Source: Haloferax elongans ATCC BAA-1513
GTDB taxonomy: Archaea > Halobacteriota > Halobacteria > Halobacteriales > Haloferacaceae
Direction: 5' to 3'
Assembly: GCF_000336755.1 (NCBI RefSeq)
Contig: NZ_AOLK01000023.1
Span: 53,070 to 117,069 of the forward strand
Length of the DNA: 64,000 nt
Shown here in pieces: positions 12,910-49,259 of the stretch. The position numbers and the translations under genes were made by a program. The notes below the pieces were generated by a model. That model made no database searches. It saw nothing but the letters and a program-made list of their open reading frames with translations, and was not told the origin of the DNA. How positions within the stretch are numbered: the stretch's first letter is position 1; the number at the start of each line of letters is the position of its first letter.

Positions 12910-12934
12910 AAATGGGCCGGCTCAGATTCGAACT
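12910..12934. other. attL (displaced tRNA-Pro 3' end)
   Basis: A 25-bp exact copy of 55616-55640, running from the TpsiC loop to the discriminator base of tRNA-Pro plus three outer bases. The sequence after the shared stretch diverges at once (12935 T against 55641 G). Confidence 0.9.
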
Positions 12935-13214: not shown

Positions 13215-14246
13215 ATGAGACAATCCATGAGGAACCCAGACGAACTCGAACCCCTCGAACCAGTTGAAGCAGTCGAGATGTACAAACAACAGCGCCGTGA
13301 CGAAGTCTCCGAGGCCACGCTCCAGAGCCATGGCTACCGACTCAAGAACTTCGTCAAATGGTGCGACAACCAAGGCATCGACAACCTGAACGACGTCGGA
13401 GGACGTGACATCCACCGGTTCAGACTCTGGCGTAGCGAGCAAGTCAACCAGACCACGTTGAAGTCACAGATGGACACACTGCGCGTGTTTATCAGATTCT
13501 GTGAGAATATCGACGGCGTGCGTGACGGCCTCTCCGAAAGCATCGACTCACCTGCTGTCGATCGCAAACCAGTTCGTGAGAAAGACGTCGTACGGGAAGC
13601 GAAAGCGAGCGACATTCTTGCCCACCACGACAAATACAGTTACGCAGGGGCTCATCATGCCATCACGCGCGTCCTCTGGGAGACCGGAATGCGTGCTGGA
13701 GCTGCCCGCAGTATCGACCTTGACGACCTCCATCTCCGCGAAGAGTTTATCGAACTACACCACCGTCCCGAACAGGATACTCCTCTTAAAAACAAGGAGA
13801 AAGGGGAGCGGTCAGTCGCAGTCTCAACGCGCACCGTCAACATTCTCCGAGACTACATCAAAGAGCATCGCCACGACGTAACCGACGACTATGACCGAAA
13901 ACCACTGTTCACCACTGAGTACGGTCGGATCACGAAAAACACGTTCCAAGCCTACGTCTATCGTTTGACGCGTCCGTGTATGTACGGACAAGAGTGTCCG
14001 CACGATCGTAACCCAGACGACTGCGAAGCCGTTCAAGGACGCATGTCTGCCAGCAAGTGCCCAGACAGTGTCGGCCCACACGCGTTCCGTAGAGGTGCCA
14101 TCACACACTTCCTCGGGATGGACACCCCGGGCGAAGTCGTCAGCGACAGGCTCGATGTCTCAAAAGACGTCATCGACGAACACTACGACAGTAGGACGGA
14201 ACGCGAGAAAATGGAACTGCGGCGGCGCTACCTCGACAACATCTAA
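13215..14246 (+). CDS. Tyrosine site-specific integrase
   Basis: A 343-aa integrase. An N-terminal SAM-like core-binding domain (about 15-100, 'SEATLQSHGYRLKNFVKWCD') is followed by the catalytic domain. The first Arg is in ETGMRAGAARSIDL (about 157), the HxxR box is 'GPHAFRRGAITH' (about 286) and the nucleophile Tyr is in 'DEHYD' (about 326). The usual second His is replaced (DRLDVSKDV), as in some archaeal enzymes. A Cys/His cluster (CMYGQECPH...C...C, about 255-282) could bind zinc. Its position next to attL makes it the probable integrase of this element. Its N-terminal start could be M5. Confidence 0.92.
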   Translation: MRQSMRNPDELEPLEPVEAVEMYKQQRRDEVSEATLQSHGYRLKNFVKWCDNQGIDNLNDVGGRDIHRFRLWRSEQVNQTTLKSQMDTLRVFIRFCENIDGVRDGLSESIDSPAVDRKPVREKDVVREAKASDILAHHDKYSYAGAHHAITRVLWETGMRAGAARSIDLDDLHLREEFIELHHRPEQDTPLKNKEKGERSVAVSTRTVNILRDYIKEHRHDVTDDYDRKPLFTTEYGRITKNTFQAYVYRLTRPCMYGQECPHDRNPDDCEAVQGRMSASKCPDSVGPHAFRRGAITHFLGMDTPGEVVSDRLDVSKDVIDEHYDSRTEREKMELRRRYLDNI

Positions 14247-19259: not shown

Positions 19260-19361
19260 ACGAACTTGCCAAATTTGGAGGAAGACCGGGGAAGCTACGG
19301 TTTCACTTTCAGGTTGGTATACCGAAACTTATCAGGATAGCAATTGTCACATTCAATCTGA

Positions 19362-20522
19362 ATGCCAACTCGTCTTCTCCACATCAGCGATACTCACCTC
19401 GGGAACCGGCAGTATGGGAGCGATCTCCGCCGGAATGACTTCGCTGATTCATTCGAAAAAGCCATTGAGTATGCCGTTGAGCAAGATGTCGACGCTGTCG
19501 TACACACAGGCGATCTATTCGACTCGCGCGACCCGAGCCTTCCCGACCTAAACCGATGCATTGACACCCTCCAGCGCCTCGAACTGGCTGGAATTCCGTT
19601 CTACGGCATCGTTGGCAACCACGAACGGAAGATGGACGACCAGTACCTCGACCTAATCGAGAAGACAGGGGCAGCCGAACGCCTAACGAGACACCCCACG
19701 CAGGTCACAGATGAGGTTACTCTATACGGCATTGACGCCGTAACAAAGCCAGCGTGGCACGCGGAGGACTTCCAGCTCGAAGCACCACCAGAGGACACGT
19801 TCACGATCCTATGCATGCATCAGCTCCTCGATCCGCCGGTGCCGGACATATTTGCCGACCACCCCCTCAGCGACGTTCTCGAACAGGTCAACGTCGATCT
19901 TGACGCTCTTGCACTCGGAGACTACCACGAGACCGTCGGTACAGTCGAAACCGGGACGAAGGTCTGGTACGCCGGGTCTACGGAGCGATGCGCAAAGGAT
20001 GAGATAGAGCCCAGGACAGTGAGCCTCCTTGAGATCGACGATGGTGAGTTGACCCGGCGGGAGTGGGAATTGGACACACGAGACTTCATCACCATCGGAA
20101 TCACGTTTGCTGAGGGCGACGACCACTCGTACGCCGATGATGTGATTGACCGCCACAACGTGGAAGACAAGGTTGTCTCAGTAGCACTTAACGGGGAAGC
20201 GACGTCAGTCACCTCCCGCGACGTGCGCAAGGCCGTTATCAACCGTGGCGCCGCAGTATGTCGGGTTGACGACCAGCGCGGTGGGCCAAACATCGACCTT
20301 TCCGGGAGGCCGAGCGGCGGCATCGAGAGTGCCGACCGTCTTATTCAAGAAAAACTAGGCGAACAGAACCTCAGCGAAATCTCGCTGGAGATTGAGGAAC
20401 GCGTTCGCACCGGAGATGTCGCACGGTCTGGATTCGACAACGAGGTGGAAGAACTTCTCATAGAGGCACAGGACGAGGCGTTCGACGGACAGCCAGCAAC
20501 AGGAGCGGAGGGCCAAGAATGA
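19362..20522 (+). CDS. mre11: Mre11-like DNA double-strand-break nuclease
   Basis: A 386-aa Mre11/SbcD phosphoesterase. Metal ligands are visible in order: SDTHLG (D10, H12), 'HTGDLFDSRDP' (D51), 'GNHERK' (N86, H87), 'MHQ' (about 152) and 'GDYHE' (about 187; the usual GHxH is changed to GDYH). The C-terminal part (about 280-370) would be the Rad50-binding region. It is the first gene of mre11-rad50-nurA-herA; its stop overlaps the rad50 start by 4 nt. It should trim broken or blocked DNA ends in complex with Rad50. Located on the element, it is probably additional to a chromosomal copy. Confidence 0.93.
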   Translation: MPTRLLHISDTHLGNRQYGSDLRRNDFADSFEKAIEYAVEQDVDAVVHTGDLFDSRDPSLPDLNRCIDTLQRLELAGIPFYGIVGNHERKMDDQYLDLIEKTGAAERLTRHPTQVTDEVTLYGIDAVTKPAWHAEDFQLEAPPEDTFTILCMHQLLDPPVPDIFADHPLSDVLEQVNVDLDALALGDYHETVGTVETGTKVWYAGSTERCAKDEIEPRTVSLLEIDDGELTRREWELDTRDFITIGITFAEGDDHSYADDVIDRHNVEDKVVSVALNGEATSVTSRDVRKAVINRGAAVCRVDDQRGGPNIDLSGRPSGGIESADRLIQEKLGEQNLSEISLEIEERVRTGDVARSGFDNEVEELLIEAQDEAFDGQPATGAEGQE

Positions 20523-23500
20523 GGGTTCAAAAAGTCTGCCTTCAGAACATCCGCAGTTACGCTGACCAGACAGTTGAGTTCCCCGAGGGCACGATTCTCA
20601 TTCACGGTGACAATGGAGCGGGAAAGACATCGCTCCTAATGGGTCTGTTTGGGGGCCTCTTTCTCTCGGAGATTCGGAGCGTCGGCAACAACTCGTTCAA
20701 ACTTGAGGAGTTCGTCCGTCGGGGCGAGACCAAAGGAACCGTTGACCTCGTTTTTGAGGTCGACAGAGTGGAATATTCCGTTGAGTGGGAAATATACACA
20801 ACAGGTACACAGAACAGCGCGACGCTCACCTCCCCGACACTGTCCGAACCCGTGTCCGGAATCGAGGACGTTCACGACGAGGTGGAGCGCATCATCGGAA
20901 TGGACGAGGACGACTTCGCCAACTCAGTCTACGTCAAACAGGGTGAAATCGACCGCCTGATAGACGCGAGCGACCGGGCAGGGATGATTGACGGTCTCCT
21001 TGGGCTCAACGAGATTGACGACTACATCGAGACGATGAAGATGGCCCGTCGGGGGGCCAGACGCGTGAGGGATCGGAACCGTGACAACGCCGAGAGCCGC
21101 CGCGAAGACCTCCGAGAGAATTTCGAACGCGACGAGGATGATTTCGAAGGTGAAATCGCCAAACTGAGTAAAGACATCGACCGCCTCGACTCGCAGGTCA
21201 ACAAGGTGGAAGACTACCTGGATGACCTTCGAGACACGCGTGCCAACCTCGCAGGTGACATAGACGACTACGAAGATGCCGTCGAGCAGAAACGCGAGAA
21301 GGAGCACCAAATCAAGGAAACAAAACAGAAGCGAACCGAGAGGCAACAGCAAATCGAGGAATGTGAGTCTACAATCGACAACCTTGGTGCAGTCATCGAT
21401 GACTTCGAAGAAGACATCGACGAACTCGCCGCCAATCTCGACATGGGTGTCGGCACGGCTGACACGGCCAAGACTGTACTCAACGACACACAAGACGCAC
21501 TCCAAACGGTTTCGGTCGAGAAGGCAAACCGGGAGAACGACCTCGAGCAGGCGACGGAGACACTCAACGAACTTGAAGCGGAGTTGGACGGGACACAAGA
21601 AGAACTAGAAGAACTTCGGGACGGACGTGATGCATTCGAGAGAGAGCTTGACGCTCGCGAGGACGACCTCACTGTAGCGAAGGACGACCACAAAGACGCC
21701 ATCGGAAAGCGAGACGAGATGGCGGTGGAATTTGTGCCTGATGTCGACTCAGGCGACGAGATTGACGCTAAGACAATCGACCATGTGGAAGAGCGAATCG
21801 ACACGCTCGACGACCGACACGGAGATACTCAGACCGAACTAGCACAGTCCGAGACCACGCTCTCCGAACGCGAGAGCGACCTTGAGGACGAGCGAGAGGA
21901 AGTAGACGACGCACGGAACGCCCTCAAGGAGAAGCGACAAGAACACGACTTGCTCGCTGACGACATCGACGCAGCTGAGCGCCGACTTGATGAGGCCACT
22001 GAAGAGTTCGAGAACCAGCTTTCATCGCTGGTCGAACGCGCTGTCGAGTACGATATTGAGCTAACTCCCGACGAGCTACAGGCCGCTGCTGACACCCAGT
22101 TGCCCGACCGGATCGAGGCGCTAAACGACGGTCTCGATGAGGTCGGAAACAAGATATCAGCACTCGAGGAGCGCAAGCGCAATTTGGTCGAGGAACGCGA
22201 AGAGCTGCGCGAACTCGACCAGGAGGGCAAGTGCCCACGATGCAGGCAGCCTGTGGACGAGACCCACATAGAGATTGAGATCGACGAGATAGAGACCAAA
22301 CTAGAAGAAACCCGCGAGGAATTGGACGAGCTACGTGGAGAACGAAAGACGCTCCAGCAGGAGAAGGCAGCTATCGGCGACCTTCGAGAAGACGTCCTCG
22401 ATGTTGTGAAATTCCACAGCGAAAAGGTCGAGACTGCCGAAGACGAACTCGACGGACTCCGCGACGAAAGAGACGAGCTCCAAGCAGACATTGACGACCT
22501 TGAGATAGAGGTTGAAACACACGAAAACGAAATTGAGCAGCTCGAAGACAATATCGCTGACCTCAAGGACGAGATTGAGCAGCTCGAAACCGACGGTGAC
22601 GAATTGGAAGAAGCGATTAAACGCGGTGAGGCTGTCGTCGAGCAGTTCGAGACGGTCGTGGTACACCATGAGCGTGTAGAGGACATAGAGGAGGAAGTCG
22701 ACCAGTTCCGCACGGTAGTGGAAGAGAAAGGGAACGAGATCGCCGAAACACGCGACAGGATTGAATCGCTCCAGTCAGAGATCAACAACCAAGAGGGTAC
22801 CGTCGAAGGCTGCAATGAAGCGCTCAACGAGGCTAACTCGGAGGTCGGCACCCTCGAAGAGCGAAGAGAGACGCTGGAGAAAATCGTTGAACTCTACGAT
22901 CAGATTGACGAGAAACAGTCTGATATTTCTGATGAGCAACAGAGTATCGAGGCCCATCGCGAGATGATCCAGACGTTCAACGAACAACTCACTGACCTAC
23001 GTGAGGATCGTGACGACCTCGAGGAGCAACTGGGCGGCACCGGTCTCGAGGAACTCGAAACCAAGCTTGAACAGGTGGAAGACAAGGTCGAGAAGCGAAA
23101 GGAGACGCGAGACGAGCTACAGGCAGAGGCCAGCAAGCTCAGAGAGGAGCGGGCCACGCTCCAGAACGAGTTGTCGAACTTGTGTGACCTGAAAGAACGT
23201 ATCGAGGAGTTTGAGCAGCGGGCGGAGTGGGCCGACGCTGTTTACGGCGAACTCGACACAACGCTTGATGTCTATGAAAATGTCAAGTCCGAACTCCGTG
23301 AAAAGTACCTCGCGTACATCAACGAGTACACAAACGACATCTTCCAGGACATCTACCTGAACAATAGCTACCAGCGAGTGGTCATCTCCGAAACCTATGA
23401 CGAGCGCAGCGATAGCTACGACTACGATATCAAGCTTCTGTGCGACGACGGCACTACCGAAGACCCGAGCAATGCTAGTGGCGGGGAGCGGGCCATCGTC

Positions 23501-23791
23501 AACCTCGCGCTCCGGGCGGGCATTTACAAGCTCATCGCTGAACTGGAGGGAGGCGACCGTGGTCGACTTCCCCCGTTCATCCTCGACGAACCGACTACCT
23601 TCCTCGACGAGGGTCACGTCGGCCAGCTCGAGGAAATGCTCGACCGAATCCGAGAATGGGATGTCCCACAAGTTATTGTCGTCTCGCACGACGAGACGCT
23701 GATTGACGGAGCCGACCACGCTTGTCACGTCGAAATCGACGAGGCGACGAACACTAGCCGTGTCACGATGCGCTCTGCGGGGGACGACTGA
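20519..23791 (+). CDS. rad50: Rad50-like SMC ATPase with zinc hook
   Basis: A 1090-aa SMC-type ATPase, longer than typical haloarchaeal Rad50. Walker A is GDNGAGKTS (about 30-38), the Q-loop region is 'VKQGEID' (about 140), and two long coiled coils (about 170-560 and 590-930) flank a CPRC zinc hook (about 571-574). The ABC signature is 'NASGGERAIVN' (about 983) and Walker B is 'PPFILDEPTTFLD' (about 1018), with the H-loop 'VVSHDE'. It partners the overlapping Mre11. The complex tethers DNA ends and gates the nuclease by ATP. Confidence 0.94.
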   Translation: MRVQKVCLQNIRSYADQTVEFPEGTILIHGDNGAGKTSLLMGLFGGLFLSEIRSVGNNSFKLEEFVRRGETKGTVDLVFEVDRVEYSVEWEIYTTGTQNSATLTSPTLSEPVSGIEDVHDEVERIIGMDEDDFANSVYVKQGEIDRLIDASDRAGMIDGLLGLNEIDDYIETMKMARRGARRVRDRNRDNAESRREDLRENFERDEDDFEGEIAKLSKDIDRLDSQVNKVEDYLDDLRDTRANLAGDIDDYEDAVEQKREKEHQIKETKQKRTERQQQIEECESTIDNLGAVIDDFEEDIDELAANLDMGVGTADTAKTVLNDTQDALQTVSVEKANRENDLEQATETLNELEAELDGTQEELEELRDGRDAFERELDAREDDLTVAKDDHKDAIGKRDEMAVEFVPDVDSGDEIDAKTIDHVEERIDTLDDRHGDTQTELAQSETTLSERESDLEDEREEVDDARNALKEKRQEHDLLADDIDAAERRLDEATEEFENQLSSLVERAVEYDIELTPDELQAAADTQLPDRIEALNDGLDEVGNKISALEERKRNLVEEREELRELDQEGKCPRCRQPVDETHIEIEIDEIETKLEETREELDELRGERKTLQQEKAAIGDLREDVLDVVKFHSEKVETAEDELDGLRDERDELQADIDDLEIEVETHENEIEQLEDNIADLKDEIEQLETDGDELEEAIKRGEAVVEQFETVVVHHERVEDIEEEVDQFRTVVEEKGNEIAETRDRIESLQSEINNQEGTVEGCNEALNEANSEVGTLEERRETLEKIVELYDQIDEKQSDISDEQQSIEAHREMIQTFNEQLTDLREDRDDLEEQLGGTGLEELETKLEQVEDKVEKRKETRDELQAEASKLREERATLQNELSNLCDLKERIEEFEQRAEWADAVYGELDTTLDVYENVKSELREKYLAYINEYTNDIFQDIYLNNSYQRVVISETYDERSDSYDYDIKLLCDDGTTEDPSNASGGERAIVNLALRAGIYKLIAELEGGDRGRLPPFILDEPTTFLDEGHVGQLEEMLDRIREWDVPQVIVVSHDETLIDGADHACHVEIDEATNTSRVTMRSAGDD

Positions 23792-23793
23792 AG

Positions 23794-25071
23794 ATGGATT
23801 CCGAAGCTGTTGGCACTGTTCGGGAACTGTTCGCCGAGATAGATGCAGCAGTTCCCCGTGAATTAGAGTCGCAGGCCGAACACGCGCGCCGAATGTTCGA
23901 ATTTCTCGGGCTCGATGGGGGCGTGGTGAAGCCGATAGGCGACCCGACCTACCAGCGGACGCGCATCGATGAGCTTGGAACGTGGGCTGAAGATCCGTGG
24001 AGTGGCCAGAGCTACGGAGTCGACGCCAGCACGACCCGTCCGATGGAGTACAACAACGGGATGGTCATCGATGCTGCCCACGCCAAGACTGCCGCAGTTG
24101 GCGAATCGGCTGACCGTACAGTTGAACAAGTAGGACAGATTGTCGGCGTAGCATTCCTCGACGACACTGATACGACTCTCCACCGGAAGACCATCGAGGG
24201 GGATTACGTCATGGGCGAGTTGGTACGTTTCCCTGAGTCAACCGAAGAGCTACGCAACATCTCTAAGTCGGTGGGGGCAGTAGCCCAGCGCCTAAGCGAG
24301 GGGCAGCAAGCGGTCAACTCGCTTGACAGCATCGACGGGGCATTGTTCCTTGACGGGTCTGTCCTGCCACTGGGAATCATTTACTGGGTGCTACTCGACT
24401 ACGCAGGCGGAAGGTCTCCAGCCGGATCGTGGGGACTCCCAGCCGATATCGTCCGCAACTACGTCGAGATTATCGACCAACAGTACGAGCGCAACCAACC
24501 CGTAATTGGCATTGTCAAGACATCGACGATGTCACAGGTGGTCTCCTCACTCAACGAGAAGCTTGATCAGCACGACATCACTGAGGACGGGCAACAGCCA
24601 GAGGTGCCGTGGATTCGAGACCATCAGTTCCTTTCCGAAGTGCTTCGATTCGAGAATCTAGACTACCTCACCTACACGTCGTGGTTCGTTAGTGAAGGGC
24701 AGAAGATTTCCGGCGAGGTCTACCGACTTCTGGAACCACTGTCGGATGACTTGCAGCACGGTAGCCCAGATGACTACCGGCGAGCGTTTTGCTTTGTCCG
24801 GCTCCCAAAGACTGGCGATTTGCTCCGGATTGAAACACCCTACCTGATGGTGCGGGAAGAAGAGATGCGCCGGCAGATTCAGCTGAAGGCACTGAAGGCC
24901 ATCGCGCAGCGGCGTGGTGTACCGCGTGCCATCCACCGAGCTGACCGACTCGCCCGCATCAGCCAAGAGAACCGAGAGAAAATCCGCGACATGATCAAGC
25001 GCACTGAGGCCGCGTACGACCACAATTGGGATGGTCGCTGGCGTAACCTCACCGATGACACAGACCTATGA
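23794..25071 (+). CDS. nurA: NurA-like 5'-3' nuclease
   Basis: A 425-aa NurA-family nuclease. The two metal-binding aspartates are in YGVDAS (about 75) and 'ALFLDGSVLP' (about 188). The C-terminal 'RLPKTGDLLRIETPYLM' and 'LKAIAQRRGVPRAIHRADRLARIS' blocks match the final NurA motifs, including the conserved His. In thermophilic archaea NurA resects 5' ends together with HerA. Its start is 2 nt after the rad50 stop, and its stop overlaps the herA start by 4 nt. NurA-HerA is not a usual part of the haloarchaeal core genome to my knowledge. Confidence 0.9.
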   Translation: MDSEAVGTVRELFAEIDAAVPRELESQAEHARRMFEFLGLDGGVVKPIGDPTYQRTRIDELGTWAEDPWSGQSYGVDASTTRPMEYNNGMVIDAAHAKTAAVGESADRTVEQVGQIVGVAFLDDTDTTLHRKTIEGDYVMGELVRFPESTEELRNISKSVGAVAQRLSEGQQAVNSLDSIDGALFLDGSVLPLGIIYWVLLDYAGGRSPAGSWGLPADIVRNYVEIIDQQYERNQPVIGIVKTSTMSQVVSSLNEKLDQHDITEDGQQPEVPWIRDHQFLSEVLRFENLDYLTYTSWFVSEGQKISGEVYRLLEPLSDDLQHGSPDDYRRAFCFVRLPKTGDLLRIETPYLMVREEEMRRQIQLKALKAIAQRRGVPRAIHRADRLARISQENREKIRDMIKRTEAAYDHNWDGRWRNLTDDTDL

Positions 25072-26954
25072 CAGACGACGTAGACGAACTCCTCAACAAC
25101 GACCCCATAGCCGACGAACAGCAACCCGACCAACCGATTGACTCGGACGACAGCGGCGGAGAGGAAGACTCCACGCTGCGGGAGGATACCTCCATTCCTG
25201 AATCTCCTGTGCCCAACGACGGATCAGAACCCACAGATGGAGAAGTTGGGCACGTGCTCGCGAGCGAAGAAATTCGCGTTGCTCGCGACGAGTACAACGT
25301 CAACACCTTCGTGACCACTAGCCGGCGCGATGACGTACGGGTGGGCGACTATGTGGAGATTCCGTACCCTGGCGGTGACGATAATTTGTTCTCGGTCATC
25401 GACGGCCTGCGATACGAGCCGTATACCGAACTGGACGACAAGTCGGACACGCACAACATTATCAGCAAGGCACGCACCCTCGACGAGTCCGAGTACGTCC
25501 TCGTGGCAGAACTCGACCCGATAGCAATCCTCCGTGATCGGGCTGGTGAGTTGGAGCGAGGCATCGTGAACCGTATACCCAAACCGAACACTCCGGTTAA
25601 CCTCTCTCGCGACGACGAGCACCTCCGTACTGGGCTCAACATCCCACAGGAGGGTATCTTCGCTGGTTACCTCTCGGTCGGTGGCGACCGGATGGAAATC
25701 GACGGTGACCCGTTCCCCTACTACATTCAGAACCCCGGCATTGAACCCGACACCGGCGAGATTGAGGACGGTGAACCGGCGGTATTCCGGCATGCGCTCA
25801 TTGCAGGGTCGACTGGCACCGGCAAGACCCATTTCACAAAAAACCTCCTGAGGCAGTTCGTCAGCGGCAAGCGGTATCCCGTGGATGTTGGCTCGGACAG
25901 CGAAGTGGAGCGCAGCAGGCTCAATGTCGTCATCTTCGATCCGGAGAACGAGTACTGGGAGATGCGCGGCAACAACCCGGCGCTGACCGACGATCTGCGT
26001 CAACGGCTGCGCAACCAAGACATCGAATTCGACGGTGTCGACGACTTGGAGGTGTTCGTTCCGGATGTCGACCACACTCGAAGCCCCTCGACCGAAGAGA
26101 GTCAACAGCTTACTATCCCGTTCTCCATTGCGAAGCACGAGCCACAACTCCTGATGCCGTTCGACCAGATGTCGGACGTCACTCGTGGGGCCATCACTAG
26201 CTGTCTTGACGCGTACTTCAGTTGCTTCGACGAGGACAACGACGACTGGTCTACACGCACCATTCCCAAGCCGACGTACGAGGACTTCGTCCAGTTCCTC
26301 GACGAGCATGAACACGAGGACAGCCAGCTCCGCCAGTGGAACAGTATCGGCGACGGAACGTGGGACGCAATGTGCCGGCGCACAAAGCAACGCGAGTATT
26401 TCGATGTCTTCGACACGGGTACGAACCCCTTCCCCGAAATCTCCGACCAGATCTTCCGCGAGGGGCAGGTTACGGTCATCCCTACGAGCCATCTCAGAGG
26501 GGAGAAAGAGTATCTCGTCGTGCTGTCGATTCTCTCGTACATAATCGAGAACAAGATTGACGACTTTGGTGTTGACCCCGCAGTCAAGAGCACGCCAATG
26601 CTTGTGGCGGTTGACGAGGCCCACAACTACTTCTCAAGTCCATCGAACATCCGTGAGGCCTACATTGTGGGGAAGGCCCGGGAGGCCGTCAAGCAAGGTC
26701 GGAAGGACAAGCTAGGCCTGTTAATGATTACGCAAAATCCCGGCGACATCGACGGGGACATTCTCAAGCAAGTCAACACCAACGTCTTCCTACAACTCCG
26801 CAACGAAGTCGTTGAGGATGTGCCGTCAGTTCCGCGCGGTTTCCGAAAAGACATCCCGAAATTCGCCAAGGGTCAGGCCGTCGTTAAGGCTCCTGACGTG
26901 GAAGCAGTGGAAGTCGTCGGACTCCCTTACTGCCTTACTCGTCACGACAACTGA
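25068..26954 (+). CDS. herA: HerA-like hexameric DNA translocase
   Basis: A 628-aa HerA/FtsK-type ATPase. The N-terminal 60 residues are acidic and disordered; about 70-230 is a HAS-barrel-like domain ('HVLASEEIRVARDEYNVNTFV'). Walker A is GSTGTGKTH (about 246-254), Walker B 'MLVAVDEAHNYF' (about 510), sensor/arginine region 'GLLMITQNPGDID', and a C-terminal 'RGFRKDIPKFAKGQAVVKAPDV' brace. It is the fourth gene of the mre11-rad50-nurA-herA unit; all junctions overlap or nearly touch. It would pump DNA for NurA resection. Confidence 0.93.
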   Translation: MTDDVDELLNNDPIADEQQPDQPIDSDDSGGEEDSTLREDTSIPESPVPNDGSEPTDGEVGHVLASEEIRVARDEYNVNTFVTTSRRDDVRVGDYVEIPYPGGDDNLFSVIDGLRYEPYTELDDKSDTHNIISKARTLDESEYVLVAELDPIAILRDRAGELERGIVNRIPKPNTPVNLSRDDEHLRTGLNIPQEGIFAGYLSVGGDRMEIDGDPFPYYIQNPGIEPDTGEIEDGEPAVFRHALIAGSTGTGKTHFTKNLLRQFVSGKRYPVDVGSDSEVERSRLNVVIFDPENEYWEMRGNNPALTDDLRQRLRNQDIEFDGVDDLEVFVPDVDHTRSPSTEESQQLTIPFSIAKHEPQLLMPFDQMSDVTRGAITSCLDAYFSCFDEDNDDWSTRTIPKPTYEDFVQFLDEHEHEDSQLRQWNSIGDGTWDAMCRRTKQREYFDVFDTGTNPFPEISDQIFREGQVTVIPTSHLRGEKEYLVVLSILSYIIENKIDDFGVDPAVKSTPMLVAVDEAHNYFSSPSNIREAYIVGKAREAVKQGRKDKLGLLMITQNPGDIDGDILKQVNTNVFLQLRNEVVEDVPSVPRGFRKDIPKFAKGQAVVKAPDVEAVEVVGLPYCLTRHDN

Positions 26955-27111
26955 GCCGCTTTACCCAAACTTCCAGCTTAGGAATCCGCACGGAACTATA
27001 CGAAAAAGATACGAATCCTCTTTTCAAGGTGCCATTTACCAGTAGTTCTAGCCGAGCAATGGTGGCGGTCAAGGGCGATGTCGCGCACGATGCTGAGCAG
27101 TGGTGTGCGGA

Positions 27112-27181
27112 TGTGATCTTGAAGTGTGAGTCGAGATAATGACGTGGCACTGCGAGTTGGAACTGTGATGTGAGAGTGTGA
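27112..27181 (-). repeat. 13-bp TCACA array 1 (TGTGA orientation)
   Basis: TGTGA at 27112, 27125, 27164 and 27177, with degenerate words in phase at 27138 and 27151. The spacing is exactly 13 bp or multiples. Less regular TGTGA words continue to about 27260. Confidence 0.65.
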
Positions 27182-31043: not shown

Positions 31044-31424
31044 TTAGAGGAGCCTCTCGTAATCGAAGTAATCGTTGTTGTCTATGTCGTTGGCGATGAT
31101 ATCGACACCACCAGCATAATACTCCCTCAAGAGCGTTACGAGTTCCTCGCCGGACTTCTCGGGGTGCTTAATTTCGATGAGCGTTTTCAACACACCCTGA
31201 GGATCGAGAGACCCGATACTCGTTCGGTCGGCCCCATCCAAGCTGTGTTCACTTCTGTTATCCACCTCTAAACCAACAGCAACTGCGAGGTCAATAATAC
31301 GACTGACAGCGAGGTCATTCTCGTCTTCGTTTCGGAATTCTTCGTTGACGTGCTTCTTGATTTTAGTGAGCTTTTCGCTGTCAGCGTGGATGGTGGCTCC
31401 GCCTTCGATATCGTCGAAACTCAT
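31044..31424 (-). CDS. Small protein of the helicase/ATPase operon
   Basis: A 126-aa protein whose start overlaps the ATPase stop by 4 nt. The N-terminal helix pair 'SEKLTKIKKHVNEEFRNEDENDLAVSRIIDLAVAVGLEVD' resembles DndE-like or ribbon-helix-helix segments. The C-terminal half is acidic ('VDIIANDIDNNDYFDYERLL'). It is probably a DNA-binding or bridging subunit. DndE homology would fit the DndD-like partner but is not secure. Confidence 0.65.
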   Translation of the reverse strand: MSFDDIEGGATIHADSEKLTKIKKHVNEEFRNEDENDLAVSRIIDLAVAVGLEVDNRSEHSLDGADRTSIGSLDPQGVLKTLIEIKHPEKSGEELVTLLREYYAGGVDIIANDIDNNDYFDYERLL

Positions 31425-33382
31425 TGGTCGACCAACTCCATTGTCGAATCCATGTTCTTGTCGGGTTTGATAACGTAATGCACCCCAATATGATTCTTAA
31501 TCGATTCCTCGAGTTGTTGGAGTTCGGCGTCGGTCACCAACAACACAATTGGTTCCTCAAGCGTCGTAAAGAACTGCCCCTGCGCACGACTGTTGTCAAG
31601 GTCTAGCCGGCCAGCTACGGTGTCGAAGACAATCGTCGTGGAGTACTTTGCATACTCGTTTAGCCCGAAGATGAACGACAACGCAGTCAGTTGGGTCTCG
31701 CCTGCCGACGGCGGGTGGTCGTTCATCGCCTTCTTCGAGCCGTTGTTTTTCACTAGCTCAAGAACGAACGAGTCGTCATCCTCGGCATCACCAGCGAAGT
31801 CGATCCCTTTGTAACGTCCTTTGATGAACTCGGACTGACTGACCTGATTGAAGACTTCATCCATCTTCAGCTTGATAGCCTCGCGTTTCTGTTCGATGTG
31901 GGCCTCGCGAATGCCATCTAAGTGGTCAATGGCTCGTTCTGCGGCTTCGATTTTTTCGATGGTGTCGTCGATGGTTTTCTGCCCCGACTTTTTCTGTTTC
32001 TCCCGCTGGATACGACTACGCTCACTTTGTAGTTCTTGGATTTTTTCCGCCTTATCGTCGAGCCCGTCTTGAATGTCACTGAGGCGCGATTCTAATCGAT
32101 TGATGTTCTCCTTGTACCGTTGTTTTTGCCCTTCGGCATCGGTAGGGCGACCGCCAAATTCCTCCATCAACTCCTGGCGTTTACTCTCCTCTTTCCGGAT
32201 CTCGTTTCGGAGGCGTTGAATTTCGCCCATCACTCCACCTGGGATGCGTTTCGGAGAGGTAGCGCTATTCAGGGTGTTGATTCGCTGACGTAGCGAATGG
32301 ATTTGATCAGTGAGCGAATCTTCCGATTCAACGTCTTCACCGCCATTCGCATGTACCTCGGGAACAGCATCGACGTGTTCCTCACCACAAATGGGACAAC
32401 GCCCATCCAGTGCCTCCTGCTGAAGCTCTTGGACAATCTCTTGCTTGTGTACTGATGACCGGAGTTCGGTCAGGTCATCGGCACGTTCCTGCAAGTCGTC
32501 GACGATGTCGTCGATCGTGTCTTCGAGGATGGCATATGGAAGTTGAGTCCATGCATCGCGGAGCTCGTCGAGTTCGCTCGCTTTATTGGCCTTCTGTTGC
32601 GCGATGTTATCTTCTCGAGACTGGAGTTGTTGGGCGAGTTCGTCGTCATATTTTTCGAGCTCCTCACGCGTTTCCTCGAGAGTTCTCTTCTTGTTTCCAC
32701 GCTCGTCACGGAGCTCATCCCGCTCTTTTTCCAACTCGGTGATCTCGTCGCGAATCTTCTTGTATTCCTGGTTGAGCTCCTCACGCTCACTCTTCTCCTC
32801 GCGTGCTCGCTCCAGTTCTGGGTCGTACTTGTTGTCGATGACGTACTCCAAGTCTTCCTTGGCGTGGATGATGGCTTGGTGCTTGAGGATAGTCTCGATA
32901 TCCTCCTTGACCTTTCGACCCGTTTCGTCATCGATGAGCTTGCGAATGCGCTCGCCGTCGAGGAAGAAGAAATCCTTCAGCTGCTCCGGTAGAAGTTCAT
33001 TGATCTCATCTTGTGCTCGTTCCCCCTCGTATCTGTTTTCACCGTCTATGACTAGCTTGAGGTCTTCATAGGCACGCTCGAGGTCGGGATTGAATGTGGA
33101 GATTTCGCGCCGCAGGAGATGATCGATGTTGTCTTCGGTGAACTTTATTTCGACAAACAACTCGCGTTCGTCTTCCTCTCGTGCAGTTGCATTCCAATTT
33201 TGGCGGAAGTTGTCGTACTCGGAGTCTCCGTATAGTCCCCATTGAATTGCTTTGTGGAAGCTGGTTTTCCCAGCGCCTTGGGGGCCTTCGATGATATGGA
33301 TTTGACCGTCTGAGAGGGTAAAATCGACTTCTAGGTCTCGATATGGGCGGAAATTCCGCACTTTAACGCGCTCAAATTTCAT
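31421..33382 (-). CDS. DndD/Rad50-like ATPase with zinc hook
   Basis: A 653-aa SMC-type ATPase. Walker A GPQGAGKTS (33-41), a DndD-like 'FFFLDGERIRKL' block, coiled coils about 190-325 and 380-500, a CPIC hook (about 329-332), the signature 'PSAGETQLTAL' (about 555) and Walker B 'TIVFDTVAGRLD' (about 585; Asp-Thr in place of Asp-Glu). DndD proteins in phosphorothioation systems share the DGE and SAGE motifs, but no dndA, dndB or dndC is present here. It fits the ATPase of a helicase-methylase-ATPase (Hma-like) defence system. Confidence 0.88.
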   Translation of the reverse strand: MKFERVKVRNFRPYRDLEVDFTLSDGQIHIIEGPQGAGKTSFHKAIQWGLYGDSEYDNFRQNWNATAREEDERELFVEIKFTEDNIDHLLRREISTFNPDLERAYEDLKLVIDGENRYEGERAQDEINELLPEQLKDFFFLDGERIRKLIDDETGRKVKEDIETILKHQAIIHAKEDLEYVIDNKYDPELERAREEKSEREELNQEYKKIRDEITELEKERDELRDERGNKKRTLEETREELEKYDDELAQQLQSREDNIAQQKANKASELDELRDAWTQLPYAILEDTIDDIVDDLQERADDLTELRSSVHKQEIVQELQQEALDGRCPICGEEHVDAVPEVHANGGEDVESEDSLTDQIHSLRQRINTLNSATSPKRIPGGVMGEIQRLRNEIRKEESKRQELMEEFGGRPTDAEGQKQRYKENINRLESRLSDIQDGLDDKAEKIQELQSERSRIQREKQKKSGQKTIDDTIEKIEAAERAIDHLDGIREAHIEQKREAIKLKMDEVFNQVSQSEFIKGRYKGIDFAGDAEDDDSFVLELVKNNGSKKAMNDHPPSAGETQLTALSFIFGLNEYAKYSTTIVFDTVAGRLDLDNSRAQGQFFTTLEEPIVLLVTDAELQQLEESIKNHIGVHYVIKPDKNMDSTMELVDQ

Positions 33383-33387
33383 TCGTG

Positions 33388-33567
33388 TTAGTCTCGGTCG
33401 TTAAGATATTCGTTAATGAAGTTGTCCATGTGGCGCTTTTTATTTTGGCGTGTGCCGTGGTGTACACGTGGGTTTTCCCACTCTAGGATCTTCGTAACCA
33501 ACTCGCGCTCGTGGGCGTCGTCAATTTCCTCTTGGACTATTTCTCGTAAGTCCCTATCGAGAGTCAT
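33388..33567 (-). CDS. 59-aa basic/acidic linker protein in defence operon
   Basis: A short gene: ATG at 33565-33567 overlaps the helicase stop (33564-33566) as ATGA, and it ends 5 nt before the ATPase start. The protein MTLDRDLREIVQEEIDDAHE continues RELVTKILEW and ends with a basic RQNKKRHMDNFINEYLNDRD. It is all helical. The tight coupling on both sides shows it is a real operon member. No family is recognised. Confidence 0.72.
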   Translation of the reverse strand: MTLDRDLREIVQEEIDDAHERELVTKILEWENPRVHHGTRQNKKRHMDNFINEYLNDRD

Positions 33568-35651
33568 TCGTATACAGCAACCTGATTGCGGAGTCTTATA
33601 ATATCTAGGTCATTTTGCTCTCGGTTCCATGCGGCCTCGTTCATTCGCTCAACCCGAAGTAATTCCTTATTGATCAGGTTAACTTCGGCAGTGCTCAAGT
33701 CCGCGTGTTGGAATTCAATCTCTGCCTGGGCGACAGGTAGTGTGATGAAGTCGTGTATTTGCGCACGGGTCTCCTCCTCAGCTTTCCGTAGCACTCGTCC
33801 CCGTCGCTGAACGGCCTCTCGTTCCGACATTGAGTTTGCGACCAACACTGCCGAGTCGCATTCTGGAACGTCGATTCCCTCGTTGAGAACGTCGATGGAG
33901 ACAAGCGTGTCGAGGAACCCGTCTTCGAAGTCGGACATGAAACCATCCCGCTCATCGGACGAGAGAGACCCAAAGAACAGCCCAATGTTGCGTGCCGAGG
34001 ATTCGTCGATGACGGATTTTACCCTACGAGCATGGTCTCGAGTGTTGCAGAACACCAACGTCTTGTCTCCCAACCCTTCGATAACATCAGCGGTCACCAC
34101 GTCTTTCGCTTGGCACTCTTTCAGCACACGAGCTCGCTCCATGATTGCACCGCGCAGCGGTGGGTTTCGATCAGCCACCTCTGTAATGGGGTCGTTCTCG
34201 GAGCTCCGGTATCGCAGGTATTTCTGAGCAATATCCTTCGACAATTCGTTGTACTCCTCACGCTCAACTGGGTTTAGCGTCACAACGTGGACATGGTACT
34301 CGTACTCGCTGAGTACACCATAGTGTTCAATGGCATCCTCAAGCGTGATGGTGTCGACGACATCACCGAAATATCGCTCGATGAATTCGTCGCCGTCGTC
34401 ACCGCGCTCTGGTGTTGCACTCAACCCGATCCGACCGCCGGTCGGTTGAAACTGATCGAGCACTGCTCTCCTGCGTTCTGAACCCACATTGTGCACCTCG
34501 TCGGCGATGAGAATCTGCTCCGACGGGTGTGTTCGAGAGCCGACCATCTCGAATATTTTTTCCATCGTATCCGGATACATGGTTGAGACAACGACCAACG
34601 GCGCATCCCGGTCGGAGAGTAGCATATCGTAGAGATTCTTCGACCAGTCCTCGTCTCCAGTGCACTCAATCACAACCGAATTAGGGAAGAACTGCCCGAC
34701 GTTATCGGATGAAGCCCATTGTTTGACTAAATCAGTAGTTGGAGCGAGAATGACGATAACAGAGTCATCCGTGGCGACCTCTGAAGCAGAAAACAGGGAC
34801 GTCCAGGTCTTCCCGGTGCCAGTTGCGTGCTCTAGGAGAATTCGGCAGCCATTTTCGAGGAACAGGTCAATAGCATCTTGTTGGTACGGACGTGGTGTTG
34901 GGCCTTCGTCCTGTTTCTGGGCTGCACTTGTAATCTCATCCCAATCGGGTTCGTATCTGGGCTTGTACTCCAAAATATTCGATTCAACGGCTTCAGGAAA
35001 TTCGAAGATTCGGGCGCCAACAGCACGATCGTCCCACAATGACCCGAACTCGCTCTGGTGACTTTCGACCTTGGCGGCTTCATCCCAGTCCTCCGTCGGG
35101 TGGGTAACCCAGCTTCTGTTCAGGTCGAGAGACTCTCGGTTTCTCTGAAGGGCCTTGAACGACTCATTTGGCGACCCCACAACTGAGATGCTTGTGTTGT
35201 CATCCGAGAATATCGCGACTTTCTGGTGCCACTGACCATAGTCGCTACTTCGTGGCCGTTGGTTCTCATCGACGATTGCACCGACCTTGATGTCCAAGAT
35301 ATCGTTGGCAATCAACCACGCCAACGCCTCCAATACTTCTTCGGAGCTACCGTTCTCTACCTCCTCCCAGTCGATCTTGTCGACCAACACGTCGTCTGTC
35401 TTACCGCGTTCAATCGCCTCAATGTCGGACGGAAATAGTTCTATCCCGGTGATTAGCCGAATCTTCCCGTCGTTGTCGATGAACTGCTTCAAACCCTCCG
35501 AGAATATAGAAAGCACTGAGGATGAGAAATCGCCTGTAATGCGATCGTAGGCGGTGCTGCGTTGGAGGGCAGGGATGAAGAACTCTCGTAGATGGTCGGT
35601 ACTGCCGGGATAGTACCCGTCCCACTGATAGTCACGGAGAGACACTTTCAT
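33564..35651 (-). CDS. SF2 helicase with N-terminal PLD-like nuclease domain
   Basis: A 695-aa fusion. Residues about 1-235 are phospholipase-D-like, with one HKD-type motif HQKVAIF (H142, K144) and 'VVGSPNES' (158-164). Residues about 250-640 are an SF2 helicase: 'YQQDAIDLFLENG' (Q region), Walker A ATGTGKTW (276-283), DEVH (384-387), SATP (411-414), and motif VI 'QRRGRVLRK' (about 617). The tail is helical. It leads the operon with the 59-aa protein, the DndD-like ATPase and the 126-aa protein. The role fits a DNA-cleaving or unwinding effector of an Hma-like antiviral system. Confidence 0.9.
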   Translation of the reverse strand: MKVSLRDYQWDGYYPGSTDHLREFFIPALQRSTAYDRITGDFSSSVLSIFSEGLKQFIDNDGKIRLITGIELFPSDIEAIERGKTDDVLVDKIDWEEVENGSSEEVLEALAWLIANDILDIKVGAIVDENQRPRSSDYGQWHQKVAIFSDDNTSISVVGSPNESFKALQRNRESLDLNRSWVTHPTEDWDEAAKVESHQSEFGSLWDDRAVGARIFEFPEAVESNILEYKPRYEPDWDEITSAAQKQDEGPTPRPYQQDAIDLFLENGCRILLEHATGTGKTWTSLFSASEVATDDSVIVILAPTTDLVKQWASSDNVGQFFPNSVVIECTGDEDWSKNLYDMLLSDRDAPLVVVSTMYPDTMEKIFEMVGSRTHPSEQILIADEVHNVGSERRRAVLDQFQPTGGRIGLSATPERGDDGDEFIERYFGDVVDTITLEDAIEHYGVLSEYEYHVHVVTLNPVEREEYNELSKDIAQKYLRYRSSENDPITEVADRNPPLRGAIMERARVLKECQAKDVVTADVIEGLGDKTLVFCNTRDHARRVKSVIDESSARNIGLFFGSLSSDERDGFMSDFEDGFLDTLVSIDVLNEGIDVPECDSAVLVANSMSEREAVQRRGRVLRKAEEETRAQIHDFITLPVAQAEIEFQHADLSTAEVNLINKELLRVERMNEAAWNREQNDLDIIRLRNQVAVYE

Positions 35652-40413: not shown

Positions 40414-42546
40414 TCAATCCACAGACGACTGCACACGTGACACTTCTTCTTTATGACTGTTCAGTATCTGGCTCAGGTACTCATCAATCTCAGCCATTAC
40501 TGTGGTCTCGTCTTCGTCCTCCGTCCGAGCAGCCTTACACAATTGGTCGAATAATTCAGCTAATTGGGACACCTGTGTGTTGGTTAGTTCGTTCGGGTCG
40601 ATGACTGGAATCTGCTTAAGCTCATTCGGCTCGATTTTTTGCAAGCCCTGCGCGTACGTCCGGCCACTCTGTGCCACGATCTGGTCAACAATATTGCTGT
40701 TGAGATACGCACAAATCGCACGTATTTGTCGGTCTGAGTAATCTTCGAAATAGATACTGTGGAGGTTATTGAGGTTCCGAGCGTCGGTTTTGTTGTGGAT
40801 GAATCGAAATCCACTCTGAGTCATGTATGTTGCCCAAACGTCAGCGGGCTCACGGCGGTCTACACGGTACCAGACCGCTCTAGATTGGGCAAGGTAACTC
40901 TCGTCTGCTCCCTGTTTGAGGCCAGATTTCAGATACTCACGTACGCCGTCTCCACCGAGTGAACTCGTCTCGCCATTGACGTGGTACAACAACCACGTTT
41001 CTTTGTTCTTTTTTCGCCACTCGTCGAAATCCAGTTGTGTACAGTCATAGTGTTCTACGCTGGTTGCATTACGGATGAGCGGAGAGAGATATTGATCGTC
41101 GATGTCCCACTTTTCAACCTGTTTGTCAGTCAGACAGAAGTAATCATTATTCCCTGTAGCAATGCCGCGCTTTAGACTGCCGATATCACTGAGTGGTTTG
41201 AGATCTGGGAAGCGTGTGACAGGATCTGGATCGAAGTACTTTGTCCACTTCTCATCTGGGTCTAGCTGACCCTGTTCGGTGACCCAGACGGTTCCGAAGT
41301 CGCATTCTGATGCGCCTGTTTCGATTACGTTCACAAGGTCATCTGCGTCCGGCCATTTGTCAAGTTCGATGAAGCGTGTGTGGTTCTTCTCATTGGGGTT
41401 GTCCTGACGTTCGAGCAGGGTAATACAAGATGTGGTGTGGACATCCTCGAAAGTGAGTGAGTCGTGGTCGTGGAGGATGACAGCGTTGATATTGAAATTG
41501 TCCAGAAGATACTCCTTGAGCGGGGTGCCGTAGTTCGTCTCGAGAAACTCTGACGGTGTTAGGAATGCCATTCGTCCCCCTTGCTTCAGGAATTGTGTTG
41601 CGTGGATGTAGAAGTAGAGATACATGGGCGACTGCCCTGACAGTGAGAGACCGCCAGCTTCCTCTTGGACTTTCTTTTTAATCCAGGCCTTGTCTTCTTG
41701 ACTCAGTTCGTGGTGGCGAGAGTATGGAGGGTTAGAGACAAGCGAATCCATTTTCTCAGGTACTGACGGAGAGGGCTTGCTAATGTGTCCTTTCGATTCG
41801 GGCAAGTCGATTTCGAGAAAGTCGCGATGGTAGAAATTCGGAGTTCCATCTCCGTTGATGAGTTTGATTGCGGTAGTAGACATCACCACTGCAAGCGGAT
41901 TGACGTCCACACCATACATCTCGCGAACACTGCTTTTGCCACAGTGGCTTTGTTTCCGTTTATACGCTCTCGCTGTCAGTGCGCCTGCACCCATTCCGGG
42001 GTCAAATACGGTGTCATCAGCACTGGTTATTGCCCAGTTGGATAGCACCTCGGCGACGTGTTCTGGTGTGCGAAACTGGCCGAGCTTCCGTCGGGATTCC
42101 TGTAGGATGATAGATTCAAACAACCATCCGATTGTTTCGGCTGGATCGTCTGCATCGACGAGCAGTTGACGTAGTTCGATAATCTCTCGTAGTGTATCTG
42201 TATCAGCGGTGAATGCTACCTCGTCGAGGATGCACTCTTTGAACGCGTTATTGCCGATGATGGATTTTGCCTCCGCAAAACACTCGCGAATGTCGTTGTC
42301 TTCGTTGAGGCTTTTTAATTCATAGCCGTCAAGTCGGTATTGGGAGTAGAGTGTGCTTTTAAGCAGGACGTTGAATGCAGCTTGGCGCGCAACGGTCAAT
42401 AGCGGTTTTTCCGTTCGGTCGAGACCATGATATGATGTCCAGTCATTGAGGCGAGCCTCAATGTCGCTGTCTGCTGGTTCGAATTGAGCATAGATAGCGT
42501 CTCCACCTTGGAAAATGGCATCTATTAGCGTCGATTCCTCAGACAT
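40414..42546 (-). CDS. N6-adenine DNA methyltransferase of the Hma-like system
   Basis: A 710-aa protein from the ATG 42544-42546 (MSEESTLID); a longer frame from 42666 is unlikely. SAM motif I FDPGMGAGA (181-189) preceded by 'GQFRTPEHVAEVL', catalytic NPPY (272-275), and a C-terminal target-recognition-like region (about 430-690; 'SDIGSLKRGIATGNNDYF'). The form is that of type IIG/BREX-like stand-alone adenine methylases (TaqI-type fold). It would modify self DNA so that the helicase/ATPase genes spare it. A decayed copy of its 3' end borders the helicase gene. Confidence 0.9.
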   Translation of the reverse strand: MSEESTLIDAIFQGGDAIYAQFEPADSDIEARLNDWTSYHGLDRTEKPLLTVARQAAFNVLLKSTLYSQYRLDGYELKSLNEDNDIRECFAEAKSIIGNNAFKECILDEVAFTADTDTLREIIELRQLLVDADDPAETIGWLFESIILQESRRKLGQFRTPEHVAEVLSNWAITSADDTVFDPGMGAGALTARAYKRKQSHCGKSSVREMYGVDVNPLAVVMSTTAIKLINGDGTPNFYHRDFLEIDLPESKGHISKPSPSVPEKMDSLVSNPPYSRHHELSQEDKAWIKKKVQEEAGGLSLSGQSPMYLYFYIHATQFLKQGGRMAFLTPSEFLETNYGTPLKEYLLDNFNINAVILHDHDSLTFEDVHTTSCITLLERQDNPNEKNHTRFIELDKWPDADDLVNVIETGASECDFGTVWVTEQGQLDPDEKWTKYFDPDPVTRFPDLKPLSDIGSLKRGIATGNNDYFCLTDKQVEKWDIDDQYLSPLIRNATSVEHYDCTQLDFDEWRKKNKETWLLYHVNGETSSLGGDGVREYLKSGLKQGADESYLAQSRAVWYRVDRREPADVWATYMTQSGFRFIHNKTDARNLNNLHSIYFEDYSDRQIRAICAYLNSNIVDQIVAQSGRTYAQGLQKIEPNELKQIPVIDPNELTNTQVSQLAELFDQLCKAARTEDEDETTVMAEIDEYLSQILNSHKEEVSRVQSSVD

Positions 42547-42684
42547 TTGTTTATATATGTGATTGTGAAGTACACGGGAGTTTTTATAGTTATTCACCAG
42601 CGTCGGGTGCCGATTAGTAGTTGTCGACGTGACTAAGACATTGATGATTGGAACTTGCCGTGCCACAGTTTAACGTGGTCGCCA

Positions 42685-47887: not shown

Positions 47888-48361
47888 TATATTGCTACCA
47901 ACATAGACCAACATAGAAAAGATTACTCAAGAGTACGACGTTTTCAGCTCGGGTTTTAATGTTTCGGACAATCAGAAAGACGGATTTCGGGCCGAGACTG
48001 GCCATCAAACCGAGTCGACAACCTTGAGCCGAATAGTTAGCCTTCCTGGCTTCGCTTGTTTGTGCATACCCCGTTTATTGGGTGGAACAAACCTCAATAG
48101 AACCCGATCCCCGAGATTACAAGTGATAGTGTCGCTCCCACTTTGTGCTAGCCGGATAGCCCGATCTGCCAGTAGGCAATGCTGTGTACTCCGTCGTGTT
48201 TTTGTCCCGTCGGAAAACGCTCTCCATACCGTTTTCTGGCTAACTTCGGAGAGGAGAGTTATGAGAATAGGGATAGTGCTCGTGATTAATCTGTTTCGGG
48301 GGGGAGAGCGTTGATAGCTGTGTGGCGCTGGGTTTGGTCGCAGTTTTGGTTTTTAGGTCGT
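47888..48361. other. Gene-poor gap with CTAG palindrome
   Basis: No credible gene. It holds the palindrome GCTAGCCGGATAGC (48147-48160). A G-run (48298-48304) lies near the right end. Confidence 0.5.
48147..48160. repeat. CTAG palindrome copy (GCTAGCCGGATAGC)
   Basis: One mismatch from the perfect copy at 27409. It lies between the GmrSD gene and the membrane protein at 48362. Confidence 0.65.
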
Positions 48362-48712
48362 TTAGAAGCTTGAACTGTGAATTTTGATTCGAAGAACGAC
48401 TGCTCCAAGAGCTGCACCGGCATAGATAATCCAGTCAGTGAGCCCAATGAAGTCCGTCTGAGAGAGCATCGGGAGTGCCAAGAAAACGCCGATGACGAAC
48501 CCTGCGAGATAGCCAAAAGACCAGTATCTTGACGCATCAACGGTCATTACGATGCTGACAATCGAGACAACGATAATGCCAGAAAACAGTCCTCGAGGAA
48601 GCAAACCAGCCTCGACGAGACGGGGGACAACTTCTCCGATGAAAACTGCTACAACCAGTGCCCCGACGACCATTGAGATACCCCGGTCGTACCCGTGTTC
48701 GATTCCAGGCAT
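48362..48712 (-). CDS. Membrane protein, four helices
   Basis: 116 aa (MPGIEHGYDRGISMVVGALV). Hydrophobic helices near 12-30, 40-58, 64-82 and 88-108. No family is recognised. Similar small membrane proteins accompany several island modules (42963, 53666); they may be paralogues too short to align by eye. Confidence 0.68.
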   Translation of the reverse strand: MPGIEHGYDRGISMVVGALVVAVFIGEVVPRLVEAGLLPRGLFSGIIVVSIVSIVMTVDASRYWSFGYLAGFVIGVFLALPMLSQTDFIGLTDWIIYAGAALGAVVLRIKIHSSSF

Positions 48713-48844
48713 ATGTCAGACGAAGAAACAGGGGTGAATAAGTGTGTTTCCTGTAGTACCTGTGAAGACCCGACCGCTACGCTGACCCCTCACGGACGCA
48801 CATTCATTACCAGAAAACAATCCAGTTCTCAAGTACACTAACAG

Positions 48845-49065
48845 CTACTCATCATCGCCAGGGTAAACAATCGGTTCGATCACGACGACTTCGTGCTTGG
48901 AAGAAACCATGCCACTCTCGACCTGGCCACGTCAAGCTCAGTCAACCACTCCAACTTCCTCTCTGAGATTTCACTAGCCGGGATGTTTTCCCGGTTCAGT
49001 CGCTCAATCAACAACAATTCGTCCTCCCCGATGTGATCAATCTGACTCCGTCGCAACACCAGCAC
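48845..49065 (-). pseudogene. QIDH-box family protein, frameshifted relic
   Basis: It begins MLVLRRSQIDHIGEDELLLIERLNRENIP...EWLTELDVA. The family then expects a DGVVFEPLV-like strand. That strand appears in another frame ('ESGMVSSKHEVVVIEPIVYPGDDE') and stops at 48845-48847. One frameshift near 48925-48935 joins the parts. The N-terminus is also shorter than in the intact paralogue at 43186-43647. A CGGCTAG half-palindrome lies upstream at 49250-49256. Confidence 0.65.
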
Positions 49066-49257: not shown

Positions 49258-49259
49258 AC

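What the first reader, a model, noticed from the sequence alone, without database searches (positions are those of the whole stretch)
19362..26954. Complete mre11-rad50-nurA-herA unit on a mobile haloarchaeal island
The four-gene end-resection cassette is known from thermophilic archaea. Haloarchaea generally carry mre11-rad50 alone on the chromosome, as far as I know. Here all four genes are fused by 4-nt overlaps or 2-nt gaps inside an integrated element, next to restriction systems. The enlarged Rad50 (1090 aa) and changed GDYH motif in Mre11 set it apart. HerA-nuclease pairs are used in bacterial antiviral systems, so this could be a defence or element-maintenance machine rather than housekeeping repair.
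Basis: partly seen in the sequence, partly recalled or inferred. Interest (0 to 1): 0.85.

Follow-up and report, generated by a model that had tools for sequence, protein, structure and literature searches.

The report
Mobile four-gene DNA-end-processing cassette in haloarchaea
A Haloferax genome carries, on a 42.7 kb island inserted at a tRNA gene, a second and transferable set of four DNA-end-processing genes (mre11, rad50, nurA, herA) beside its own chromosomal copies; the same four-gene block moves as a unit between salt-loving archaea and their plasmids, probably as a weapon against foreign DNA.

Summary
Confirmed: four complete, overlapping genes (Mre11 386, Rad50 1090, NurA 425, HerA 628 aa) lie on a 42.7 kb tRNA-Pro island of a Haloferax species, with exact 25-bp attachment repeats and an empty site in the closest congener. 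The genome also has core mre11-rad50 and a separate core nurA-herA pair. The island genes belong to an accessory family in 40 of 391 haloarchaeal genomes and on plasmids, in one constant order. It moves horizontally as exactly these four genes: DNA homology between distant hosts starts 40-180 bp before mre11 and usually stops within 174 bp of herA. Catalytic motifs are intact and dN/dS is 0.08-0.16. Relatives often sit among defence genes. In one genus the cassette occupies the native locus of the lost core mre11-rad50, so it is probably a complete working machine. Best reading: a mobile end-processing and degradation module, most likely used against foreign DNA; defence is inferred, not shown.

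The parts
19362..20522 (+). mre11 (accessory type), 386 aa nuclease; DTHLG, GDLFD, GNHE, H153, GDYH motifs
20519..23791 (+). rad50 (accessory type), 1090 aa SMC-like ATPase; Walker A, zinc hook, signature and Walker B intact; arms about 100 aa longer each than in core Rad50
23794..25071 (+). nurA (accessory type), 425 aa RNase H-fold nuclease; D77, D187, K242, D276 invariant across 24 sequences
25068..26954 (+). herA (accessory type), 628 aa DNA translocase of the HerA/FtsK class; Walker A GSTGTGKT, DEAH, QGRK and ITQ motifs conserved
19298..27128 (.). the transferable block: DNA homology with the cassette of a different genus (G022, 87% identity) begins 64 bp before mre11 and ends 174 bp after herA
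12910..12934 (.). attL, 25 bp exact copy of the 3' end of tRNA-Pro
13215..14246 (+). tyrosine integrase of the island
55616..55640 (.). attR inside tRNA-Pro(CGG) 55619-55691 (-)
31421..35651 (-). PbeC (31421-33382) and PbeA (33564-35651), parts of a phosphorothioation-linked defence system; no PbeB, PbeD or Dnd partner was identified in the island
40414..42666 (-). type II-like N6 DNA methyltransferase
46151..50267 (-). GmrSD-type (DUF262-DUF1524) protein (46151-47914) and Mrr-type nuclease (49260-50267)

Best explanation
An accessory, horizontally mobile Mre11-Rad50 / HerA-NurA cassette. Shown: four co-inherited genes move as one block among haloarchaeal chromosomes, islands and plasmids and are kept under purifying selection with intact active sites, in hosts that usually already own core versions. 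Inferred: Rad50-Mre11 binds free or protein-blocked DNA ends and clips them; the HerA ring, with NurA docked on it, then translocates along the duplex and degrades it. The most likely benefit is destruction of linear or broken foreign DNA (virus genomes entering as linear molecules, or DNA already cut by restriction systems that travel in the same islands). Because the module is complete, it can probably also take over the housekeeping role when the core genes are lost.
For: Patchy: 40 of 391 genomes against near-universal core genes. Same order in all complete relatives. HGT: own versus another genus (G022) accessory 84-93% but core 58-74% identical; own versus same genus (G266) accessory 48-64% but core 77-83%. 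Block boundaries. The four genes' distances correlate at r 0.92-0.97. dN/dS 0.08-0.16. On plasmids of Haloferax, Halocatena, Natribaculum, Natrinema. Neighbours include OLD/Gabija-type, BrxHII, pAgo, Avs2, Dnd/Pbe, SngC and Csx1 matches, while flanks of core copies show only inteins and AAA-ATPases of the PAN type; own island carries Pbe, methyltransferase, GmrSD and Mrr genes. T. kodakarensis HerA-NurA degrades both strands of dsDNA from any end and was proposed to be antiviral (PMC12977600). Presence at the native core locus in genus g41.
Against: No protection assay exists. No neighbour is fixed, so guilt by association is loose; some copies sit among metabolic genes. No PADLOC system covers it. 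The defence comparison uses few control loci (46 ORFs) and counts by family, not by ORF. Displacement of core genes in g41 fits a repair role equally well.
Confidence: 0.5

Rival explanations
1. Extra DNA-repair capacity: the cassette is a transferable double-strand-break resection machine that helps the host survive damage (desiccation, salt, UV), with no special anti-invader role.
For: All parts are homologues of repair proteins; it sits at the native chromosomal locus of the lost core mre11-rad50 in one genus, in two subtypes and orientations, and core HerA is gone there.
Against: Hosts usually already hold both core sets; patchy, plasmid/island location and defence-rich surroundings are unusual for plain repair genes; in H. 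volcanii loss of core Mre11-Rad50 makes cells more resistant to DNA damage, not less (PMC2700283 as cited in PMC12977600).
Confidence: 0.27
2. Element maintenance: the cassette serves the island or plasmid itself (processing ends during integration, replication or recombination, or attacking competing elements).
For: It lies on an integrase-bearing island and on plasmids.
Against: The four genes travel independently of any one element type: no integrase, partition or replication gene is shared by the relatives, and homology stops at the cassette; chromosomal residence in genus g41.
Confidence: 0.17
3. A decaying passenger with no present function.
For: Some relatives have split herA or rad50 frames.
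Against: dN/dS 0.08-0.16 for all four genes and all motifs intact in this copy.
Confidence: 0.03

Closest known systems
Archaeal mre11-rad50-nurA-herA operon (housekeeping end-resection machinery)
   Same: Same four families, same motifs; the same gene order mre11-rad50-nurA-herA occurs in other families of the phylum (f14, f29).
   Different: Here it is an accessory, horizontally moving second set beside core copies; its sequences form a clade separate from those families and from core haloarchaeal genes.
Core haloarchaeal mre11-rad50 (polB-PAN locus) and core haloarchaeal nurA-herA pair
   Same: Closest sequence relatives (Mre11 and HerA 36-41% identity); GD-x-H Mre11 motif shared.
   Different: Core genes are nearly universal, split over two loci, with a shorter Rad50 (about 890 aa); NurA only about 27-30% identical.
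HerA-nuclease defence pairs (HerA-Sir2, HerA-DUF4297)
   Same: HerA-type translocase paired with an operon partner nuclease; among the best sequence matches of this HerA to solved structures are ATP-binding/HerA chains of recent entries.
   Different: Partner is NurA, and Mre11-Rad50 are in the same operon; no Sir2 or DUF4297 gene.
Lamassu and other Rad50/SMC-like defence systems
   Same: Rad50-like ATPase; PADLOC LmuB models match Rad50 here (2e-43), largely expected for SMC-like proteins.
   Different: No LmuA or LmuC; a true Mre11 partner and a zinc hook are present.

Membership tests
Archaeal mre11-rad50-nurA-herA operon family | all four families adjacent in one operon | tested here: met
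   4-nt overlaps and a 2-nt gap
Archaeal mre11-rad50-nurA-herA operon family | catalytic and ATPase motifs intact (Mre11 phosphoesterase, Rad50 Walker/hook/signature, NurA acidic residues, HerA Walker) | tested here: met
   one Mre11 metal-ligand position is Asp instead of His, as in core haloarchaeal Mre11
Archaeal mre11-rad50-nurA-herA operon family | NurA fold | tested here: met
   model pLDDT 88.5, Foldseek to 9x1m and 2ygk E 5e-9 and 3e-8
Archaeal mre11-rad50-nurA-herA operon family | end-dependent DNA processing by the proteins | not testable with these tools
   biochemistry needed
Core haloarchaeal mre11-rad50 | groups with the vertically inherited haloarchaeal copies in trees | tested here: not met
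   separate clade; core plus f13 97% SH-aLRT, accessory side 95%; quick trees only
HerA-Sir2 / HerA-DUF4297 defence | Sir2 or DUF4297 partner gene | tested here: not met
   partner is NurA
Lamassu | lmuA effector and lmuC next to lmuB | tested here: not met
   no such genes in the operon
Anti-virus defence system (any) | protects against virus or plasmid | not testable with these tools
   no experiment available; context only

The most novel reading that the evidence does not exclude
An undescribed haloarchaeal immune system in which a mobile Mre11-Rad50 pair acts as DNA-end sensor and a HerA-NurA pair as processive degrader of invading linear or cut DNA, and which has in one genus been domesticated at the native locus in place of the housekeeping genes.
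Probability: 0.42. Interest if true: 0.8.

Novelty: new variant of a known kind. Interest (0 to 1): 0.62.

Why it matters
Mre11-Rad50-NurA-HerA is treated as core archaeal repair machinery whose HerA-NurA half may really be antiviral (PMC12977600). A mobile, optional copy in genetically tractable Haloferax, beside the core copies, lets that question be tested directly by deletion or transfer. It also corrects the published view that Haloferax and halophiles lack NurA/HerA (PMC2700283, PMC7776575, PMC12977600), which affects how haloarchaeal mre11-rad50 knock-outs are read, and offers natural replacement and loss of the whole machinery in one genus.

Tried and rejected
Thermophile import: not supported, Mre11 of other archaeal families outside f13 scores about 20-77 bits against about 170-230 for core haloarchaeal and f13 copies. 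Viral carriage: no NurA relative in phage records or viral contigs, although viral contigs was scanned once only. Fixed fifth gene: none; the most widespread neighbour family occurs at 6 of 40 loci, though an OLD/Gabija-type AAA-TOPRIM gene follows herA directly in L027, L028 and L033. Gene order as a novelty: rejected, f14 and f29 genomes have the same order. tRNA-Pro as common entry site for relatives: only scattered tRNAs near other copies. NurA by sequence against solved structures: no usable match, so the fold was predicted. The left flank of the island found no match in plasmids.

Full report
Observation. Pfam and structure matches identify Mre11, Rad50, NurA and HerA. NurA was the weakest by sequence, so its structure was predicted from an alignment of 24 relatives (pLDDT 88.5, pTM 0.87); the best fold matches are HerA-NurA from Thermococcus kodakarensis and NurA from Sulfolobus (E 5e-9 and 3e-8).

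Island. GC content drops from 60-65% to 45-58% between about 12 and 55 kb. A 25-bp sequence, the 3' end of tRNA-Pro(CGG) at 55619-55691, is repeated exactly at 12910, next to a tyrosine integrase at 13215-14246. In the nearest congener, G113, the left and right flanks lie about 160 bp apart: the 42.7 kb insertion is absent there. Besides the cassette the island carries PbeA and PbeC, a methyltransferase, a GmrSD-type protein and an Mrr-type nuclease.

Other copies in the same genome. A core mre11-rad50 begins at a contig end (C13, Mre11 38% identical) and a core nurA-herA pair lies on C22 (HerA 37%, NurA about 30%). The core NurA passes Pfam's NurA cut-off by far (86 bits against 21) and is present in 15 of 15 Haloferax genomes. 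Core HerA (64-95% identity) is present in about 140 of 145 haloarchaeal genomes. [quoted passage not shown] volcanii or halophiles (PMC2700283; PMC7776575; PMC12977600) and with the inferred loss of a nurA family before haloarchaea (PMC7599335).

Family. A search of 391 haloarchaeal genomes with the island Mre11 gave two populations: scores of about 170-230 bits (core copies, almost everywhere) and above 260 bits in 40 genomes. The neighbourhoods of the high scorers hold rad50, nurA and herA in the same order and strand wherever the contig is complete, apart from copies with split frames. Named carriers include Natronosalvus, Halarchaeum, Halovenus, Halorhabdus, Natrinema, several Halorubrum, Haloquadratum, Halosimplex and Haloferax, and plasmids of Haloferax alexandrinus (101 kb), Halocatena salina, Natribaculum breve and Natrinema sp.. 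None was found in phage records or viral contigs.

Mobility. Against another genus of the family (G022) the accessory genes are 84-93% identical and the core Mre11/Rad50 only 74% and 58%; against the same genus (G266) accessory genes are only 48-64% identical and core Mre11/Rad50 83% and 77%. That reversal shows horizontal transfer. DNA alignments between pairs of loci start 40-180 bp before mre11 and end within 174 bp of the herA stop (one group includes an OLD-type gene after herA). The four genes' distance matrices agree (r 0.92-0.97, Mantel p 0.001), so they travel together. No other gene is shared by many loci.

Trees. Quick maximum-likelihood trees separate accessory Mre11 from a clade of core haloarchaeal Mre11 plus family f13 (97% SH-aLRT for the latter, 95% for the accessory side); HerA gives the same picture, with core HerA 99% and the main accessory clade 99%, but only 71% for all accessory copies together. 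One sequence that I had labelled core (L082) fell with a divergent accessory copy. Long outgroup branches make the exact root unsure. From genome sizes I suspect f13 is Methanosarcinaceae; that is not shown.

Function-related evidence. All catalytic and ATPase motifs are conserved, and dN/dS between this cassette and that of G022 is 0.08 (HerA), 0.11 (Mre11, NurA) and 0.16 (Rad50). The Asp in the GD-x-H motif of Mre11 also occurs in core haloarchaeal Mre11, so it is a class-wide trait. Rad50 is longer than core Rad50 because its coiled-coil arms are longer (hook at residue 572 versus 454); some other accessory subtypes have arms of core length. Neighbour proteins of accessory copies match Old/GajA, BrxHII, pAgo, Avs2, PbeC, DndC, DndD, SngC and Csx1 models at E below 1e-20; neighbours of core copies match only homing-endonuclease (intein) and AAA-ATPase models plus one GlgB-like model, the AAA-ATPases being of the proteasome-activating type, here called PAN. 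Control numbers are small.

Replacement of the core genes. In the haloarchaea examined core rad50-mre11 lies between DNA polymerase B and PAN (L050-L053). In genus g41 none of nine genomes has a core Mre11 or core HerA, while the sister genus g51 has both. In three of the nine the accessory cassette sits between polB and PAN, in the opposite orientation to the core pair; in a fourth a different accessory subtype sits there in the core orientation; a fifth has a cassette elsewhere; four have no copy of either kind. The simplest reading is replacement in place, at least twice, which means the cassette can probably do without the core set. An ancestral four-gene locus in that genus is a less simple alternative.

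Mechanism. Inferred: Rad50-Mre11 recognises DNA ends and can open protein-blocked ends (established knowledge of these families; see PMC10586767); HerA-NurA then degrades the duplex, as shown for T. kodakarensis where both strands are cut from any end (PMC12977600). In an island with restriction-type systems this would clear cut or linear foreign DNA. Whether this is its main benefit is unproven; the repair and element-maintenance readings keep substantial weight.

Verdict. The parts are known; the accessory, mobile, self-contained form in haloarchaea is, as far as the papers searched show, undescribed. New variant of a known kind.

Noticed in passing
27112-27181(-), 30626-30728, 42685-42728, 43982-44038, 50606-50636, 54943-54999: Arrays of a 13-nt repeat, TCACA followed by 8 variable bases, lie in six intergenic gaps of the island; a three-unit motif occurs 7 times in the whole genome, all inside this island, and the four-unit motif is rare in 292 haloarchaeal genomes (5 genomes). 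Possible protein-binding or recombination sites between modules.
   Followed up: partly
G000:C22:277136-280834 (L047) and all Haloferax genomes: A core nurA-herA pair exists in haloarchaea although the literature calls the genes absent or not apparent.
   Followed up: yes
L038, L039, L041, L044, L221-L225 (genus g41): The core mre11-rad50 locus between polB and PAN is occupied by accessory cassettes of two subtypes in opposite orientations, and four species show no Mre11 of either type.
   Followed up: partly
L027, L028, L033 directly downstream of herA: An OLD/Gabija-type AAA-TOPRIM protein (638 aa) plus a 70-aa ORF follow herA and share the block of DNA homology, making a larger form of the cassette.
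   Followed up: partly
L056, L057, L061, L068, L069, L075, L127: herA (and twice rad50) is split in several relatives while mre11 and nurA stay whole; could be pseudogenes, insertions or sequencing errors.
   Followed up: no
28134-28772: A second tyrosine-recombinase-like gene (212 aa) lies 1.2 kb after herA.
   Followed up: no
35852-40029: Three-gene stretch with a protein holding two HATPase domains (754 aa) and two unknown partners, no PADLOC match; possible unknown defence operon.
   Followed up: no
35664-35833 and 40399-40568: 170-nt direct repeat (86% identical) flanking the stretch at 35852-40029.
   Followed up: no
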